Below are positions 10,155 to 54,510 of a stretch of DNA of 64,000 bases, piece by piece. How positions within the stretch are numbered: the stretch's first letter is position 1; each line of letters begins with the position of its first letter. The stretch comes from a virus. The notes beneath the pieces are model-generated. The model saw only the letters and a list, made by a program, of their open reading frames with translations, had not been told where the DNA came from and made no database searches. The stretch is from positions 1 to 64,000 of IMG/VR virus record IMGVR_UViG_3300019889_000007; one strand, 5' to 3'. A program made the translations under genes and the position numbers.

Positions 10155-10227
10155 GCGCGCCTAGCTCAATTGGCAGAGCACCGGTCTCCAAAGCCGGGGG
10201 TTGCAGGTTCGAATCCTGCGGCGTGTG
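10155..10227 (+). tRNA. tRNA-Trp (anticodon CCA)
   Basis: A complete 73-nt cloverleaf: acceptor GCGCGCC paired with GGCGTGT (two G-U pairs), D arm GCTC/GAGC, anticodon stem CCGGT/GCCGG with loop CTCCAAA, and T arm GCAGG-TTCGAAT-CCTGC. The discriminator is G73. CCA is not encoded. Confidence 0.95.
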
Positions 10228-10282
10228 CGTCGGCGACCGAGCCCTCGGGCGCCGGTTCAATCCCCGATTCAAAGGAGCCGAC

Positions 10283-12024: not shown

Positions 12025-12095
12025 GGCGGGTTGGCCGAATGGTGAGGCGACGGATTGCAAATCCGTTAAAACCGGTTCGATTCCGGTACCCGCCT
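12025..12095 (+). tRNA. tRNA-Cys (anticodon GCA)
   Basis: A 71-nt cloverleaf: acceptor GGCGGGT/ACCCGCC, D arm GCC/GGC, anticodon stem ACGGA/TCCGT with loop TTGCAAA, and T arm ACCGG-TTCGATT-CCGGT. The discriminator is U73, an identity base for tRNA-Cys. CCA is not encoded. Confidence 0.95.
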
Positions 12096-12199
12096 CTGGT
12101 CCACAGGAATTGCGTGGCATTTGTTGTGCCCTTTGCACAGCGTGATCCTGATGGACCCGACAAAAGCAACACCCATCTTTAATCCTGAAAGGACACATC

Positions 12200-40861: not shown

Positions 40862-41169
40862 CGGTCAACCAGCCGTGTGCGTGTGGTTGTCATCCGGTTC
40901 AGGTCCAGCGACGGCTGTTCCCGTCGTTCGCGAATTTTCCAGTCCTTCACGCGGCGACACAGCAATCGATGCTGGCGGCCAGGAAGGTGGCGATGGAAAC
41001 GTATGACCATCGGAACCTGGTGTTGGCGTATCGGTTCGCCTGCTATTCGTTGACCTACCTGCGGCAGCATGGTGAAGGCAGTGAGGCGGCTGTTAAGGAG
41101 TTGGTCTCGGTCAAGGAACGGCTGGCGACGTTGATTGTTCGCGACTATCTGGAATGGCTTTTCGCATGA
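40858..41169 (+). CDS. Hypothetical protein in the integrase operon
   Basis: A 103-residue protein, ATGA-coupled on both sides. The N-terminus holds CACGCH (residues 7-12), a possible metal site. The rest is helical (DHRNLVLAYRFACYSLTYL). It could assist integrase expression or directionality, but there is no direct evidence. Confidence 0.7.
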   Translation: MTVNQPCACGCHPVQVQRRLFPSFANFPVLHAATQQSMLAARKVAMETYDHRNLVLAYRFACYSLTYLRQHGEGSEAAVKELVSVKERLATLIVRDYLEWLFA

Positions 41170-42305
41170 CGACGGCAGAGGATGGTCTGCCCGAGTTGCC
41201 CGATCTTGACGTGGGTGGCGGTGAGGTTCTTTCGGGCGAGATCGTTGTCAGCTCGGTCGGGAAGGTGGTTGCTCGACGAAGGGTGTCGGATCGTCCTGAG
41301 CCGCCGAATGCGCTTAAGGCGTTGACGGCGGCGGGGTATGACCTTGTTGTGTCGGGGGTCTCGGCCAACACACTGCGGGCGTATGAGCGGTGTTGGGGTC
41401 AGTTCAATGAGTATCTGGATTCGCGGAAGCTGGGTCGGTTGGATATTGCGCCGACACCGGCGACGGTGATCATTGACTGGATGGCGTTGATGCTTCGTAC
41501 GCCGACCAAGCAAACGAAGATTCCGATGGCGCCATCGTCGGTGTCGCAGATGTTGGCTGCGATCCGGTACAAGCATCGTGAGATTCAAGGTTCGGATAAG
41601 ACGTGGACGGTGCCGCAGTCGTTGTTGCTGACTCAGGCGTATCGGGGGTATTGCCATCAGTGGCTCGATATGGGGCATCGGGTGCAACAGGCGGAACCGA
41701 CGTCGTGGGAGGATCTTGAGGTTTATGCGGCGGGGATTGATACGTCGTCCCCTCGGGGTAAGCGTGATCTTGCGTTGATCTTGTTGTCGTTTTGGATGGC
41801 GGCGCGCGCTTCCGACATCAGTGCTTTGTGGACTTCTCCGGGTGTGGACAACATCCGGTTGAATGCGACAACGATGCAGTTGTTCCTGCCGTATTCCAAG
41901 ACGGACCAGGCGGCTGCCGGGCAGTGGGTGACAATACCGAAGTTTGACAAGAATCCTCCATTGTGTCCTGTCAGATCGGTGCAGGCGTGGCGAGCGGAAC
42001 TGCTGCAAGTTCGGCCCGAGGCCGGTAAATTGTTCGTGGAGATGCCTGCCGGTTTGCGTTCGGACTTCTACGCTAAAGGATTTCCTGGCCTTCAGCCGAT
42101 GGCCGTCAGCGACGTGACGAAACGCTGGGCGAGACGGTTGGGGTTGGGTCAAAGATCGGCGCACTCTCACCGTCGAGGTGCTGCGACGCGGGCTCACGAA
42201 GCTGGGGCGGATATTCCGCAGATCAAAAAGCTCGGTCGTTGGAAATCTTCTGACACGGTCATGAAGTACATCGACGACCAGGCGTTTGAACACCCGTTGG
42301 CTTAG
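41166..42305 (+). CDS. int: Tyrosine recombinase (integrase)
   Basis: A 379-residue tyrosine recombinase. Catalytic residues: R214 in MAARASDISAL, K245 in YSKTDQAA, H333-x-x-R336 in SAHSHRRG, W359 in GRWKSSD, Y368 in MKYIDD. The N-terminal half carries a SAM-like core-binding domain (TLRAYERCWGQFNEYL). It catalyses site-specific integration through a 3'-phosphotyrosine intermediate. Start ATG 41166 overlaps the upstream stop (ATGA). The attP site was not found. The excisionase-like gene is 2 kb upstream. Confidence 0.95.
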   Translation: MTTAEDGLPELPDLDVGGGEVLSGEIVVSSVGKVVARRRVSDRPEPPNALKALTAAGYDLVVSGVSANTLRAYERCWGQFNEYLDSRKLGRLDIAPTPATVIIDWMALMLRTPTKQTKIPMAPSSVSQMLAAIRYKHREIQGSDKTWTVPQSLLLTQAYRGYCHQWLDMGHRVQQAEPTSWEDLEVYAAGIDTSSPRGKRDLALILLSFWMAARASDISALWTSPGVDNIRLNATTMQLFLPYSKTDQAAAGQWVTIPKFDKNPPLCPVRSVQAWRAELLQVRPEAGKLFVEMPAGLRSDFYAKGFPGLQPMAVSDVTKRWARRLGLGQRSAHSHRRGAATRAHEAGADIPQIKKLGRWKSSDTVMKYIDDQAFEHPLA

Positions 42306-46640: not shown

Positions 46641-46934
46641 TCATGGCCCAGCCTGACGCAGCATCTGGGCGTACGTGTACTGCCCGATGCTGGCGGTACC
46701 TGAGGGACTGACGATCGTGATCCGGTAGGTGCTGTTCTCCACGCTGCCAGTCGAGTAGATGTCTTTGCGGATTACCCACGGGGGCGTATCGAGGTGGCAC
46801 CCGCATTCCAGGACGTACCCGGTGATGACATCACCGGCCACCGTTTGCAGGCGCGTCGTGGTGGCCTGCGGAAACCAGTGCTGGTTCCCGCAGGCCACAC
46901 ACAACTGGCCACTGGAGCAGGTCAGAACGGCCAC
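46641..46934 (-). CDS. Small zinc-ribbon-like protein co-operonic with Ro60
   Basis: A 97-residue protein. Its GTG start (46934) overlaps the end of the Ro60-like gene by 13 bases, so both are on one mRNA. The N-terminus has CSSGQLCVACGNQH and a later CGCH, enough for a zinc site (residues 6-16 and about 44-47). The rest is beta-like. A small zinc protein tied to Ro60 could be an RNA-binding or adaptor partner. No homologue known to me. Confidence 0.7.
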   Translation of the reverse strand: MAVLTCSSGQLCVACGNQHWFPQATTTRLQTVAGDVITGYVLECGCHLDTPPWVIRKDIYSTGSVENSTYRITIVSPSGTASIGQYTYAQMLRQAGP

Positions 46935-48577
46935 ACGGCGTCCTTACCACTCTCCAGGGCCGGGATCATTCCGAAGGCCGCATCGGAAAGTCCACCGAAA
47001 ACGTACCGGTTGGGCGTATCGGGTAGATGCCCGAACTTGTATCCGCCCAAGTTCCACGTGTAAATCGGGATGTTCGCGGGCACGACGTCGTCGATCTTCT
47101 TCGGGACGTCCATGACGACCCGGCCCATGTGGTCGAAACGTCGCCGCGTCTCGGCCCAGTACCGGCTGGCCACACTCAACGCCTGAGTCCACCCCGGATT
47201 GGTCTGCTCATCGGTGATGATGACGACCCGGTCATGCTTGTCATAGGTCATGACCACCGCCAGCTGCGTATCGGTACCGCCCATGTTGCTGAACTTGCCC
47301 ATCGTGCGCAGCACCGAGTCGCCACGGGTGAACGGGATACGTTGATGGGCCGTGCCGTACTGGTACAGGTCAGCCGCCTCGGCACGCAACGCGATCACCG
47401 ACCCGAACAGGCTGGCTTTCTCGTTCAGACCGAGCTGCTTATGGTTGCCGCCGTAGCCGTACGGGAACATCGAGCTGGACTGGTCCACAAGCACCAGGGT
47501 CCGGCCATCGAAAGCTGGCACGCTCGACACTGACACCGCCAGGGCTTTCTCCAGGTACTCGCCCCATCGCAGCGACCCGACGTTCTTGTGCGCCGAGTAG
47601 AACCGGAACGGCAGCTGCCGGGACCGTTTGATCTGATCGGCGCTGGCCAGGCGGTCCTGCACCTGCCGGATCGCGGCATCGGGGAGTCCGGCCTTGTCGA
47701 AGTTCGCGAGGTTACGGATGAGCGCCATGATCCCCATCGACGGGATCGTGGCTTCCCACATTTTCTTTTGGCTCGCACCGATTTGCCCGGCCATGGAAAT
47801 GGAGTCTTCCCACGTCAATCCGGCGTCTGCCAGTTTCGTCGACAGGGTTTGCACGGTGACGTTGTCGATGCCTTCGGCCAGGATCGCTTTACGGACGGCC
47901 CGGTTGGTCCACACCTGCCCCAGGATGCCCAACGGCACGGGAGTGTCAGGGTTGGACCGGTGCTTGGCAATGTACCGGAACAGGGACGACTGCTCTGCTG
48001 AGGCGGGTTTTGGGTGGACCAACGCGATGACGTCGGCGAACCGGAACGTGTTGTTCCGGGAGTCCCACTTCAAGAAGTTGAACTGCGTGTACAAGCGCCG
48101 GACGGCATCGGCGATACCGCGTTTGATCGGCTGCGGGATCTTGCGGCCGTACTTCGTTGTCCAGTACGCCAGGGCTTCAGCGGGCTCGTCAGCGCGCACT
48201 ATCACCGAATCGATGAGCTTTCGGCCGCCCGGCAGGCCCGCGATCCGCATCGCGTCGGCCGCCTCCACCGCACCCACCAACGACGCCGAACGCATGTTGG
48301 CCTTATTGCGTAGCCACGGTAGGAACCGGGCGATCCACTCCGGGTCCACCACGGCCACGGCCTGAATCAGATGCCGGTACCGGTTGTCACGATGATCGGC
48401 CGCCTCATAGAACGCTTCGGTGGACACCATGTTCGACACGGCCAACAGAAACAGTTCAGATCGGGGGTCCCGCGAATAGGCGGGCGCGTTGTGGAAGTTA
48501 CGGCCGTCGGCGACCGCCGATCCCCTGATCGGTGACTTCTGCCGGACGGCAGCGCTGGCGGTGTTGAACTTACCCAT
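46922..48577 (-). CDS. rsr: Ro60/Rsr-like TROVE-domain protein
   Basis: A 551-residue protein of normal Ro60 size. Residues 1-340 are the TROVE helical-repeat ring (DPRSELFLLAVSNM, then WIARFLPWLRNKANMRSASL, and MGIMALIRNLANFDKAG), which binds misfolded RNA 3' ends and Y RNA. Residues 358-551 are a von Willebrand A domain with a complete MIDAS: D365-x-S-x-S in LVDQSSSMF, T435 in GGTDTQL and D456 in ITDEQTN. Bacterial homologues (Rsr) with Y RNA act in RNA degradation and quality control. ATG follows AAAGGACTCACG. Three Y-like RNAs lie upstream on the same strand. Confidence 0.95.
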   Translation of the reverse strand: MGKFNTASAAVRQKSPIRGSAVADGRNFHNAPAYSRDPRSELFLLAVSNMVSTEAFYEAADHRDNRYRHLIQAVAVVDPEWIARFLPWLRNKANMRSASLVGAVEAADAMRIAGLPGGRKLIDSVIVRADEPAEALAYWTTKYGRKIPQPIKRGIADAVRRLYTQFNFLKWDSRNNTFRFADVIALVHPKPASAEQSSLFRYIAKHRSNPDTPVPLGILGQVWTNRAVRKAILAEGIDNVTVQTLSTKLADAGLTWEDSISMAGQIGASQKKMWEATIPSMGIMALIRNLANFDKAGLPDAAIRQVQDRLASADQIKRSRQLPFRFYSAHKNVGSLRWGEYLEKALAVSVSSVPAFDGRTLVLVDQSSSMFPYGYGGNHKQLGLNEKASLFGSVIALRAEAADLYQYGTAHQRIPFTRGDSVLRTMGKFSNMGGTDTQLAVVMTYDKHDRVVIITDEQTNPGWTQALSVASRYWAETRRRFDHMGRVVMDVPKKIDDVVPANIPIYTWNLGGYKFGHLPDTPNRYVFGGLSDAAFGMIPALESGKDAVWPF

Positions 48578-48607
48578 CGTGAGTCCTTTGTGGCGTACAC
48601 GGGGAGG

Positions 48608-48779
48608 TGCGGCATGAGCCGTCAGGGATCTGAGAAAAAATTGACCGGAGACACGAACCGCTCTGCCGCTGAGCTAACTGACGCTTACACGAAAGTCTTG
48701 GATTCGAACCAAGGACCTGTCTCTTGAAAGGAGAAGTAGCTCCGGTCGTCGCACCAGTGCCCTGACGGCACAAGCCGCA
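48608..48779 (-). repeat. Inverted repeat flanking Y RNA 1
   Basis: On the transcribed (minus) strand, 20 bases upstream of Y RNA 1 (48760-48779, beginning TGCGGC) can pair with 20 bases after it (48608-48627, ending GCCGCA), 18 of 20 matched. The long stem encloses the RNA and ends 30 bases before the rsr start. It may be a processing site (RNase III-like) or a leader control element. Confidence 0.7.
48632..48747 (-). ncRNA. yrlA: YrlA-like Y RNA 1 (tRNA mimic)
   Basis: About 116 nt. GACCGGAG pairs exactly with CTCCGGTC, closing the molecule. Inside: conserved CTACTTC, T arm CTTGG-TTCGAAT-CCAAG (48697-48713), a weak acceptor-like hairpin (GAC/GTC), then a near-perfect D arm GCTC-AGCGGCA-GAGC (48660-48674). 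The tail AATTTTTTCTC resembles a terminator. The order T arm, closed acceptor, D arm, with a Y stem in place of the anticodon arm, is the known circularly permuted tRNA mimic of bacterial YrlA RNAs. Confidence 0.85.
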
Positions 48780-48785
48780 CATCCC

Positions 48786-48917
48786 GAGAAAAAAGTTGCC
48801 GGAGAACACGGTGGCTTTGGCCGCTCGCCCACACCGGCCTGTTACGGACCGGCGGCAGGATTCGAACCTACGAGACCTTTAGGGTCACCCATTTGTCAAG
48901 AATGAAGTAACTCCAGC
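48786..48917 (-). ncRNA. yrlA: YrlA-like Y RNA 2 (tRNA mimic)
   Basis: About 132 nt. GCTGGAG pairs with CTCCGGC. T arm GTAGG-TTCGAAT-CCTGC (48855-48871), an 8-bp closed acceptor-like stem (CGCCGGTC/GGCCGGTG), then a D-like arm with loop GAGCGGCCAAA holding the GG pair. The closing strand repeats the GGAGTTACTTC motif of the other copies and ends in AACTTTTTTCTC. Confidence 0.82.
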
Positions 48918-49006
48918 TATCGCACCGGGATGTGCAACACCGAACACCATACCCACACGGTTACGTCTACGCCACGCATTTGCGTGAAGTGGATGTCGCG
49001 CCCACC

Positions 49007-49130
49007 GAGAAAAGAGAATCGACCGGAGTTGAGAAACTTGCTAGCGGCCTGCCAATTAACCGACAGTAGACTCGCGAAGGGTCTACCGGCAGGACTCGAA
49101 CCTGCACAACCAACGGAAGTAACCCCAGCC
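49007..49130 (-). ncRNA. yrlA: YrlA-like Y RNA 3 (tRNA mimic)
   Basis: About 124 nt. A 10-bp closing stem GGCTGGGGTT/AACTCCGGTC, then GGGTTACTTC, T arm GCAGG-TTCGAGT-CCTGC (49089-49105), acceptor-like hairpin GTAGAC-CCTTCGCGA-GTCTAC (49066-49086), and a D arm with loop TTAATTGGCAGG (GG present). It is first in the array, directly downstream of the promoter. Confidence 0.84.
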
Positions 49131-49157
49131 TTCACACCGGCGAACACGACAACACTC

Positions 49158-49186
49158 ATAGTAGCCATGTCGTGTCTGCCTGTCAG
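49158..49186 (-). promoter_or_regulatory. Promoter for the Y RNA array
   Basis: On the minus strand CTGACA (-35, plus 49181-49186) and TACTAT (-10, plus 49158-49163) are separated by exactly 17 bases, giving a start near 49151, 21 bases upstream of Y RNA 3. This is a good vegetative-type promoter for the array. Confidence 0.75.
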
Positions 49187-51756: not shown

Positions 51757-51956
51757 GAGGTCCCCTTCTTTCGGATCGCGACGGCCGCGTTCATCGCCGC
51801 GCAGAACTGTGCGGCAACTTCGCCACTGAACATGACACCCATGAACTCACCCTCGGTGTCGCCATTGCGGTGCCGGTAGATGTTGCGGTCCTGGCTGCGG
51901 CCGACCCGCCACCATTCGTCGGGGTCAAGGATGTCGACAGCCGGTTTCTCAGTCAT
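51753..51956 (-). CDS. Small hypothetical protein
   Basis: A 67-residue protein, coupled to both neighbours by ATGA (51753 and 51953). Contains DEWWRVGRSQDRNIYRH and FSGEVAAQFCAAMNAA. Function unknown. Confidence 0.7.
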   Translation of the reverse strand: MTEKPAVDILDPDEWWRVGRSQDRNIYRHRNGDTEGEFMGVMFSGEVAAQFCAAMNAAVAIRKKGTS

Positions 51957-52912
51957 GTTTTCTTCTCCTGCTTTGGGCAGCTGAACGCCGGGTGCGAGAC
52001 GAATGCCTTGTACGCGGCCATCTTCTCAGGAAACGGGTCACCGGCGTCGTCGTATCCCAGCCGTAGACCAGGATCAGCGTGAGTGCCCGGTGAGTCGAAC
52101 ACCATCCACGCTTTTATCTGCGGAAACTTGTCAAAGTTCAGGACCTCGGTGGCCTGGTTGACGTATGACACCGCCGTATTGGAATCCACTTTAGAGATTC
52201 CCCATTCGATGACTCCCAACGGTTTTCCGCTCATCTCGTACTTGTCGAGTTGGGCCAAGAATCCGTTGATGTTCACCGTCAAGTACGGCCGGGCGTTCGA
52301 ACCATAGGCGTTGAACATGATCCAGTCGACCAGGCCATCGCCGGGATACAGCTTGGGGATCAGATGATCCCACTTCGGATAGTTCATGTAGTCGATGAAC
52401 CACACCACGTTGTCGACACCGAGGTTGTCAAACCGAGCGCGAACGTTGGCCCACATCCCCCGGTACTGCGCCGCCGTCCCACACGAACCGCTGCTCTGAT
52501 GACTGACGTCAGGATCTTCACCGACATCGTTCTCCGCCTCGTGGTGCAGCGTCAAGAACACCTTCTTCGGTGCCAACTGCTTGATCTTCTGGGCTGCTGC
52601 GTCGATACGGGTGTTGATCTCGGCGACGTCACCACCGGCGTCGCGCCACAACCGCACCGGCTTCCAATTGTGCACCACAATGGAATCTTGCGTGGTGGCC
52701 CAATCGACCACGTGCGAATCGGAGAACGGCAGCTCCCGACGCGATGCGAACGCGTGCACCATATCGAGCCGACGACCAATCCGCTCCTGGTGGTACTCGT
52801 GCTGGGCCTTGAAGTCTTTACCGACCTGCGGATACCCGGCGGCACGAGCGCCCAACCAGGGACGACAGGAGTTGACCAGGATTTCGTTGACGTCGCAGAC
52901 ATGCTCGACCAT
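51953..52912 (-). CDS. Glycoside-hydrolase-like (GH26-like) protein
   Basis: A 319-residue TIM-barrel-like protein. Acid/base candidate E125 in LTLHHEAEND, GVDNVVWFIDYM, WIMFNAYG, and nucleophile candidate E236 in GVIEWGIS resemble GH26/GH39-type enzymes that cut beta-linked glycans. No signal peptide. In a phage it could be a depolymerase or a virion-associated hydrolase. Family fit is by pattern only. It is third of three ATGA-coupled genes. Confidence 0.65.
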   Translation of the reverse strand: MVEHVCDVNEILVNSCRPWLGARAAGYPQVGKDFKAQHEYHQERIGRRLDMVHAFASRRELPFSDSHVVDWATTQDSIVVHNWKPVRLWRDAGGDVAEINTRIDAAAQKIKQLAPKKVFLTLHHEAENDVGEDPDVSHQSSGSCGTAAQYRGMWANVRARFDNLGVDNVVWFIDYMNYPKWDHLIPKLYPGDGLVDWIMFNAYGSNARPYLTVNINGFLAQLDKYEMSGKPLGVIEWGISKVDSNTAVSYVNQATEVLNFDKFPQIKAWMVFDSPGTHADPGLRLGYDDAGDPFPEKMAAYKAFVSHPAFSCPKQEKKT

Positions 52913-53465: not shown

Positions 53466-53648
53466 CTAGCAGCCCAGCTCGGTACGAGCAGCCTGCTTCA
53501 GGGCCTCGAAATCGCCAGCGGTCAAGGTCATGACCTGCGAAGTGTGCTTGCTGTCCCGCACGCGCGGAACACCATCGAGAAACCCGATCTCGACACAGTT
53601 GTTTGAAGGCTGGCTGCTCCGGCTTGCTTTCTTCCATTCAGTGTTCAT
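53466..53648 (-). CDS. DUF397 protein (BldB-like), paired with XRE
   Basis: A 60-residue DUF397 protein (WKKASRSSQPSNNCVEIGF, then VRDSKHTSQV). Its ATG lies inside the last codons of the XRE/DUF5753 gene. XRE/DUF397 pairs (WhiJ/AbaA-BldB type) are a hallmark of actinomycete genomes and act as developmental regulators. A second, orphan DUF397 gene is at 23104. Confidence 0.9.
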   Translation of the reverse strand: MNTEWKKASRSSQPSNNCVEIGFLDGVPRVRDSKHTSQVMTLTAGDFEALKQAARTELGC

Positions 53649-54510
53649 TCAGATACTCCTTGAGTGTTATGCAGTGTTCAGCAGTTCCATCGAACATTCG
53701 TTGGAATTGATCTGCTGCGATCGGATGAAGGCTGGCGTCAATATATCGAGCCGACCTGCCACCTTCTTCGTACACTGTCGTCGGATCATCGGGGTTGTCA
53801 AACTCCAAGATAATGAACCGGCGTTGAATGCATGGATGCGCCCCGAGCCACGGGGGGATCACCGATATTGTGACATTTGGGTGCTCAGATTTTTCGATCA
53901 AGTGGTCGATCTGTTCCTTCATGACCTCTGGTCCACCGACCAGGTTCTCCACAGACGCGAAACTCATCAAGTAGTTGATGACCAGGCCATCATCGACCCG
54001 TTTCATTATCTTCTGAGTGCGTCCCATCCGAGATTCCACGAACGTCGTGATGTCGGGCCTTGGGAGGTTGTTGGCCAACATCGTGTTTCGGACGCTACGA
54101 AACACCGCCTCTGTGTAGGATTTTGTTTGAAAGTATCCTGAAATGAGGGATTCCGAGTGCTCATGCATCGTTGATGCAATCTGTTCAAGTTCCAAAAGCG
54201 TGAACATCCCCTGTGTGAACGCCCCGTCGATGAGCCGTTCATACGATGGTTTGATACCCGTCTGGACCGCCTGATTCTTCAGTTCGTCGCGTAGTGTGCC
54301 CGAGCCGATTCCGTAGAGATCCAACAGTGCCGAGACAGTGCCGACTTTGACTTTGGCTTTGCCGATACCGTTTTCGATGGTGTTCAGCGTGGATGTGCAG
54401 CACACTCCGGACTCTGCGACATCTTCTTGTGTTTTGCCAGCTTCTTTGCGCAATCGCTGCAACGTGCGTCCGAGCTGGCGCTTATGCATTCGTGGTTGTG
54501 GCGCGGTCAT
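53638..54510 (-). CDS. XRE/DUF5753 (WhiJ-like) regulator
   Basis: A 290-residue regulator. HTH in residues 12-65 (RTLQRLRKEAGKTQEDVAE, SGVCCTSTLNTIENG). The remaining 200 residues match DUF5753 (ERLIDGAFTQGMFTLLELEQ, VESRMGRTQKIMKR, VTISVIPPWLGAHPCIQRRF, YEEGGRSARYID). Such regulators pair with DUF397 proteins to control differentiation in Streptomyces-like hosts. Start ATG after GGAGGT. Operator-like repeats lie upstream. Confidence 0.92.
   Translation of the reverse strand: MTAPQPRMHKRQLGRTLQRLRKEAGKTQEDVAESGVCCTSTLNTIENGIGKAKVKVGTVSALLDLYGIGSGTLRDELKNQAVQTGIKPSYERLIDGAFTQGMFTLLELEQIASTMHEHSESLISGYFQTKSYTEAVFRSVRNTMLANNLPRPDITTFVESRMGRTQKIMKRVDDGLVINYLMSFASVENLVGGPEVMKEQIDHLIEKSEHPNVTISVIPPWLGAHPCIQRRFIILEFDNPDDPTTVYEEGGRSARYIDASLHPIAADQFQRMFDGTAEHCITLKEYLNEH

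What the first reader, a model, noticed from the sequence alone, without database searches (positions are those of the whole stretch)
46641..49186. Phage-borne Ro60 (TROVE/vWA) operon preceded by three tandem tRNA-mimicking Y RNAs
Seen in sequence: a 551-residue Ro60-like protein with an intact MIDAS (D365, T435, D456). Upstream on the same strand are three RNAs of 116-132 nt, each with a closing stem, T arm, closed acceptor-like hairpin and D arm, read T-acceptor-D, after one good promoter. Known: bacterial Rsr proteins work with YrlA-type Y RNAs that mimic circularly permuted tRNA and can tether nucleases or modify RNA turnover; related genes have been noted in some mycobacteriophages. Inference: a phage RNP that manipulates host RNA decay, tRNA-like modification or stress survival. 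Three diverged Y RNAs on one Ro60 would allow three different partners or targets.
Basis: partly seen in the sequence, partly recalled or inferred. Interest (0 to 1): 0.95.

Follow-up and report, generated by a model that had tools for sequence, protein, structure and literature searches.

The report
Phage Ro60 with three Y RNAs
A virus of actinobacteria carries a gene for the ring-shaped RNA-binding protein Ro60, preceded by three small RNAs that each mimic part of a transfer RNA; this is a genuine member of a known protein-RNA partnership, and comparison shows that such RNAs come in arrays of up to seven in related viruses and are partly mis-annotated there as tRNAs.

Summary
The 551-residue protein at 46922-48577(-) is a Ro60/TROVE protein: Pfam TROVE is over its cut-off, the MIDAS is intact, and a confident AlphaFold model matches solved Ro60 structures, one of them from a phage. 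A covariance model built only from other phages finds exactly three full-length Y RNAs in the 64 kb window, all directly upstream (E 3e-15, 6e-7, 2e-5); a refined model gives E 2e-22, 5e-15 and 6e-14. Strong covariation in 123 relatives supports the structure.

Phage Ro60 and YrlA-type Y RNAs are already known, so this is a new member of a known kind. Three copies are not unusual: most actinobacterial and viral Ro60 loci carry 2-3 units, and viral arrays reach seven. No neighbouring gene is conserved, so the working cassette is Ro60 plus the Y array. Most likely it forms Y-RNA-gated Ro60 particles that redirect host RNA turnover; that step is inferred, not shown. "Three copies, three partners" is untested: the three tRNA-like bodies differ, but arrays are not significantly more mixed than chance.

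The parts
49158..49186 (-). sigma-70-like promoter CTGACA-17-TACTAT; expected start of transcription coincides with the 5' end of the first outer stem
   Evidence: 2 promoter-like sites in 3.1 kb, 0.7 expected by chance
48994..49151 (-). Y RNA 1 (YrlA type): 15-bp outer stem, Ro-type inner stem ending GTTACTTC, T arm, closed acceptor hairpin, D arm
   Evidence: R1 48999-49146 E 6.5e-7; R2 E 4.8e-15; outer stem
48774..48938 (-). Y RNA 2: 14-bp outer stem; tRNA-like module with an extra hairpin (GACC-CTAAA-GGTC) 5' of the T arm at the place of a class II variable arm; body nearest to tRNA-Tyr; called tRNA-Ser(tga) by ARAGORN
   Evidence: R1 48778-48934 E 1.9e-5; R2 E 5.8e-14
48618..48769 (-). 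Y RNA 3, nearest to the Ro60 gene: 10-bp outer stem plus a further 4 bp; standard module (TAGCTCA..GAGC D arm, AGGTC variable loop)
   Evidence: R1 48624-48763 E 3.2e-15; R2 E 2.2e-22
46922..48577 (-). Ro60 (TROVE + vWA) protein, 551 aa, ATG start, MIDAS intact
46641..46934 (-). 97-aa ORF (GTG) overlapping the end of the Ro60 gene by 13 bases; cysteine-rich (CVAC ... CGCH), no relative found; membership in the cassette uncertain

Best explanation
It is a self-contained Ro60-Y RNA cassette of an actinobacterial, probably temperate phage. Shown: a Ro60 gene and, directly upstream on the same strand, three diverged YrlA-type Y RNAs with outer stem, Ro-type inner stem and a circularly permuted tRNA-like module. 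Inferred: one promoter at 49186 makes a precursor that is cut into three Y RNAs and, further on, Ro60 mRNA. Ro60 binds each Y RNA by the inner stem. The tRNA-like end recruits host proteins, most likely the exonuclease PNPase as in Deinococcus RYPER and/or tRNA-modifying enzymes, so that the phage RNP steers decay or quality control of structured RNA, possibly tRNA, during infection or lysogeny. The array gives one Ro60 several exchangeable adaptors. The confidence is for identity plus mechanism; the identity alone I hold at about 0.97.
For: Protein family, MIDAS and fold: pLDDT 87; 13 solved TROVE/Ro60 chains at E <= 2.1e-12. RNA: three independent full-length hits and no others. Covariation in 123 non-window relatives: 95.3% of cells paired against 61.9% in shuffles and 36-45% when slid; 35 of 37 pairs show double-sided changes. 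Y-Ro60 linkage: in 8 whole actinophage genomes nearly all full-length hits lie next to Ro60, the exceptions being weak matches that look like tRNA genes; units found at 76 of 78 viral and 80 of 80 cellular Ro60 loci. No other gene family recurs beside viral Ro60 genes. Rsr-YrlA-PNPase tethering and modification of YrlA by DusA and TruB are reported for other bacteria (PMC8394870).
Against: No expression, binding or partner data for this phage. The closed acceptor loop and missing anticodon rule out aminoacylation and decoding. PNPase tethering was shown with the D. radiodurans Y RNA, not with actinophage ones. The window lacks the minimal non-tRNA-like Y RNA that many relatives have, so its mode of gating could differ.
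Confidence: 0.6

Rival explanations
1. tRNA-body decoy: the Y array mainly sponges tRNA-directed enzymes (host modification enzymes, or defence nucleases that recognise the tRNA elbow), protecting phage and host tRNAs; Ro60 only stabilises the decoys.
For: T loop TTCRANY, D-loop GG and U8 are kept in almost all modules. The three window bodies differ, one with a class II-like extra arm. Viral arrays hold more non-standard D arms than cellular ones (28 of 126 against 4 of 89 classified, crude classes). Several Ro60 phages carry the cassette inside tRNA clusters, and two next to an RNA ligase. YrlA as competitive inhibitor of an anticodon nuclease has been proposed in Salmonella (PMC7790460).
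Against: The anticodon arm is absent. This phage has only two ordinary tRNA genes in the window. Cellular Ro60 loci carry similar arrays without any phage context. Within-array diversity is not significantly above chance (P 0.065).
Confidence: 0.2
2. Lysogeny moron: the cassette is expressed from the prophage, helps the lysogen survive stress (starvation, UV), and has no role in lytic growth.
For: It is a minus-strand island between plus-strand genes, with its own promoter-like site. An integrase-family gene (41154-42305) and an HTH/DUF5753 gene (53638-54510) point to a temperate phage. Rsr is linked to UV and stationary-phase responses in Deinococcus (PMC8394870).
Against: Related cassettes occur in large actinophages inside tRNA clusters. 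No expression data.
Confidence: 0.15
3. The three RNAs are degenerate tRNA genes or chance tRNA-like hairpins next to an unrelated TROVE gene.
For: ARAGORN calls one of them tRNA-Ser; Rfam YrlA scores stay below the gathering threshold.
Against: Full-length hits with independent models at E 6e-14 to 2e-22, strong covariation of outer and inner stems, and linkage to Ro60 in about 160 loci.
Confidence: 0.02

Closest known systems
Bacterial Rsr (Ro60) with YrlA Y RNA (Deinococcus, Salmonella, Mycobacterium smegmatis), RYPER machine
   Same: TROVE + vWA protein, Y RNA with basal stem and permuted tRNA-like domain encoded beside it
   Different: Here in a phage, three tRNA-like copies, no rtcBA repair genes; protein about 16% identical to D. 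radiodurans Rsr in the structural alignment; partners unknown
Y RNAs of bacteria and mycobacteriophages (Chen et al. 2014, as cited in PMC12282133) and 'Ro-like RNA binding protein' of actinophages
   Same: Same cassette; Ro60 38-42% identical; arrays of 2-6 Y units upstream of or around Ro60
   Different: Window array is all tRNA-like; Y2 carries a class II-like extra hairpin; no minimal Y unit found
Ro60 of Thermus phage phiLo (PDB 9L5Y)
   Same: Phage Ro60 fold (Foldseek E 4e-17)
   Different: About 25% identity; only a weak minimal Y candidate beside it (L015:4007-4072)
Putative Y RNAs near an Rsr-like gene in Listeria phage CKA15 (PMC12282133)
   Same: Several abundant small RNAs near an Rsr-like gene
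   Different: Our models find no Y RNA in its relative P100 beyond partial tRNA-like hits

Membership tests
Ro60 / TROVE protein | TROVE (HEAT-repeat ring) domain | tested here: met
   Pfam TROVE 57 bits, cut-off 23; AlphaFold model matches solved Ro60 structures
Ro60 / TROVE protein | C-terminal vWA domain with MIDAS (DxSxS, T, D) | tested here: met
   D365, S367, S369, T435, D456 invariant
Ro60 / TROVE protein | Conserved Y RNA-binding surface (Lys/His around 170-188) | tested here: inconclusive
   K170 invariant and H188 nearly invariant, H aligned with a His of Rsr 2NVO; that this residue binds Y RNA is from memory of the Xenopus work
Ro60 / TROVE protein | Binds Y RNA | not testable with these tools
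   needs co-immunoprecipitation
YrlA Y RNA (Rfam RF02553) | Score at or above Rfam gathering threshold | tested here: not met
   24.2 and 18.1 bits for two copies, third not matched; cut-off 69. Other actinophage Y RNAs score 25-47 and also miss it
YrlA-type Y RNA (class, not the Rfam model) | Basal stems plus T-acceptor-D permuted tRNA-like module, encoded beside Ro60 | tested here: met
YrlA-type Y RNA (class, not the Rfam model) | Carries tRNA modifications (dihydrouridine, pseudouridine 55) | not testable with these tools
   target residues are present in sequence only
RYPER (Rsr-Y RNA-PNPase) | Y RNA tethers PNPase | not testable with these tools
   no interaction data; PNPase would have to come from the host
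RNA repair operon (rsr-yrl-rtcBA) | rtcB/rtcA adjacent | tested here: not met
   neighbours are a 97-aa orphan ORF and unrelated opposite-strand genes

The most novel reading that the evidence does not exclude
Phage Y RNA arrays are panels of different tRNA-body mimics (standard class I, Gln-like, Glu-like, and class II Tyr-like as in copy 2 here) mounted on one Ro60, so that one RNP captures several tRNA-acting host enzymes or defence nucleases at once.
Probability: 0.2. Interest if true: 0.8.

Novelty: new member of a known kind. Interest (0 to 1): 0.45.

Why it matters
Ro60-Y RNA particles are studied in few bacteria and hardly at all in phages. The models built here find Y RNAs at nearly every actinobacterial and actinophage Ro60 locus tested, although the Rfam YrlA gathering cut-off misses all of those checked. 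Arrays of up to seven units next to one Ro60, in phages that are partly already in culture, make the question of what different Y RNA adaptors do directly testable. Several published phage 'tRNA' genes beside Ro60 are probably parts of Y RNAs.

Tried and rejected
Rfam at gathering threshold found no YrlA in the window. A single-protein scan of viral contigs found no relatives; the alignment query found 259. No conserved neighbour beside viral Ro60 genes, so no partner gene could be named. PADLOC and NCBIfam: no hits. The 97-aa ORF has no relative in the phages or in the fetched loci. Listeria P100 checked as a test of the CKA15 proposal: no Y RNA. Over-dispersion of tRNA classes inside arrays not significant (P 0.065 viral, 0.92 cellular); the D-arm classes were assigned by crude patterns and many units stayed unclassified. 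A first guess that copy 2 mimics tRNA-Ser was replaced by tRNA-Tyr after comparison with 55 Streptomyces tRNAs; isotype margins are small for copies 1 and 3. A first parser of the modules failed to read the window units and another script stopped on an error; neither is used as evidence. Near-identity search found no related phage without the cassette, so insertion of the cassette could not be shown directly. The original papers on YrlA were not held.

Full report
What is there. The window is the first 64,000 bases of a virus record of 88,762 bases. On the minus strand, ORF 46922-48577 encodes a 551-residue protein that matches Pfam TROVE over its cut-off and PHROG 850. Relatives at 38-42% identity are annotated 'Ro-like RNA binding protein' in Streptomyces, Gordonia and Arthrobacter phages. 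All five MIDAS positions are invariant in two alignments. An AlphaFold model from 37 aligned sequences (mean pLDDT 87, pTM 0.86) matches TROVE and Ro60 structures best, among them the Ro60 of Thermus phage phiLo, Xenopus and human Ro60, and D. radiodurans Rsr.

The RNAs. Rfam's YrlA model gives only weak matches to two of the three copies. I therefore looked at the relatives first. Upstream of Ro60 in the named actinophages there are repeated units: an outer stem of unique sequence, the motif CGATGCGNAG or similar, an inner stem, GTTACTTC, a module, the other half of the inner stem, a pyrimidine-rich stretch, and the other half of the outer stem. A model from five such units, none from the window, finds the three window copies end to end with E 3.2e-15, 6.5e-7 and 1.9e-5; the next best match in 64 kb has E 0.6. 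In the whole record the same three are the only full-length matches. A second model from 123 viral units, again without the window, gives E 2.2e-22, 4.8e-15 and 5.8e-14; its next match, E 9e-4, lies on the tRNA-Trp gene.

Is the structure real? On the 123-sequence alignment 95.3% of cells pair, against 61.9% after shuffling and 36-45% after sliding; 1267 cells show changes on both sides against 354 in shuffles. That alignment was fitted to the model, which leans towards the structure, but the sliding control and the size of the effect leave little doubt.

How common are arrays? With the second model, 78 viral loci have 0 to 7 units each (38 have three or more) and 80 cellular loci have 1 to 4 (24 have three or more). 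Three or more tRNA-like units occur in 22 of 78 viral and 6 of 80 cellular loci. Many loci also hold minimal units of 70-100 nt without a tRNA-like module; the window has none. In eight whole actinophage genomes nearly all full-length matches lie beside Ro60, the exceptions being weak matches that look like tRNA genes. So three tandem copies are within the normal range of the family, towards the rich end for tRNA-like units. The loci were the best 80 of each scan and are related to each other, so the counts describe this clade and are not independent samples.

Cassette and context. No other gene family recurs beside the viral Ro60 genes. In a tree of 169 Ro60 proteins viral and cellular members change places 17 times, fewer than with shuffled labels (57), so there is exchange but also viral lineages; the window groups with viral L053. 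In the window the cassette lies on the minus strand between plus-strand genes, with one promoter-like site whose expected start coincides with the first outer stem. A 97-aa cysteine-rich ORF overlaps the end of Ro60; it is an orphan and may or may not belong.

The tRNA-like modules. In nearly all units the T loop, the D-loop GG and U8 are kept, features of the tRNA elbow. The three window copies are 55-62% identical to each other, so they are not recent duplicates. Compared with 55 Streptomyces tRNAs, copy 2 is nearest to tRNA-Tyr with a margin, and it has an extra hairpin where class II tRNAs have their variable arm; copies 1 and 3 are nearest to other isotypes with small margins. Viral arrays seem to use Gln-like and Glu-like bodies more often than cellular ones, but the classes were crude and relatedness was not corrected for. 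Whether arrays are more mixed than chance was tested and is not significant (P 0.065).

Mechanism. Published work on other bacteria reports that the basal stem of YrlA binds Rsr, that the tRNA-like end contacts PNPase, and that the complex degrades structured RNA (PMC8394870). The anatomy here is the same, so I take this as the most likely mode of action, with the phage supplying protein and RNAs and the host supplying the enzyme. The decoy reading and the lysogen-survival reading remain open. Nothing here shows expression, binding or effect.

Novelty. Phage Ro60 and phage Y RNAs are known (citing Chen et al. 2014). I could not read the original YrlA papers; my recollection that they describe Y RNAs in more than 250 bacterial and phage species, with at least one tRNA-like Y RNA each, is from memory. 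The finding is therefore a new member of a known kind. What may be new is the extent and diversity of phage arrays and the mis-annotated tRNAs.

Noticed in passing
L002:2269-2343, L006:2274-2347, L011:2204-2275, L013:2245-2335, L010:1335-1405: Annotated tRNA genes (Arg, Ser, Arg, Pro, Cys) in GiJojo, Alone3, VanLee, Frankenweenie and JustBecause lie within or overlap Y RNA units near Ro60 and are probably mis-annotations (against 74).
   Followed up: partly
L016:2339-2438: A minimal Y RNA candidate (R2 23.8 bits, E 0.006) directly upstream of the TROVE gene of the archaeal virus HGTV-1.
   Followed up: no
L015:4007-4072: Weak minimal Y candidate (23.1 bits, E 0.009) just downstream of the Ro60 gene of Thermus phage phiLo, whose Ro60 structure is 9L5Y.
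   Followed up: no
L012:2186-2384: Y unit of Gordonia phage Rabbitrun with an insertion in the acceptor loop that contains a second T-arm-like sequence.
   Followed up: no
L002:4358-4556, L006:4241-4444 and similar: Junctions of two adjacent ordinary tRNA genes match the Y RNA model, because T arm, acceptor, acceptor, D arm follow each other there; this suggests one way the permuted module could have arisen.
   Followed up: no
window 46922-48577, residues about 462-489: An insertion of about 25 residues after the MIDAS aspartate, absent or shorter in most of the twelve named-phage relatives aligned and predicted with low confidence.
   Followed up: no
window 10155-10228 and 12025-12096: Two ordinary tRNA genes, Trp(cca) and Cys(gca), far from the Ro60 cassette.
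   Followed up: no
window 41154-42305, 53638-54510, 51953-52912: Phage integrase family gene, HTH/DUF5753 regulator, and a possible glycosyl hydrolase family 26 protein on either side of the cassette.
   Followed up: no
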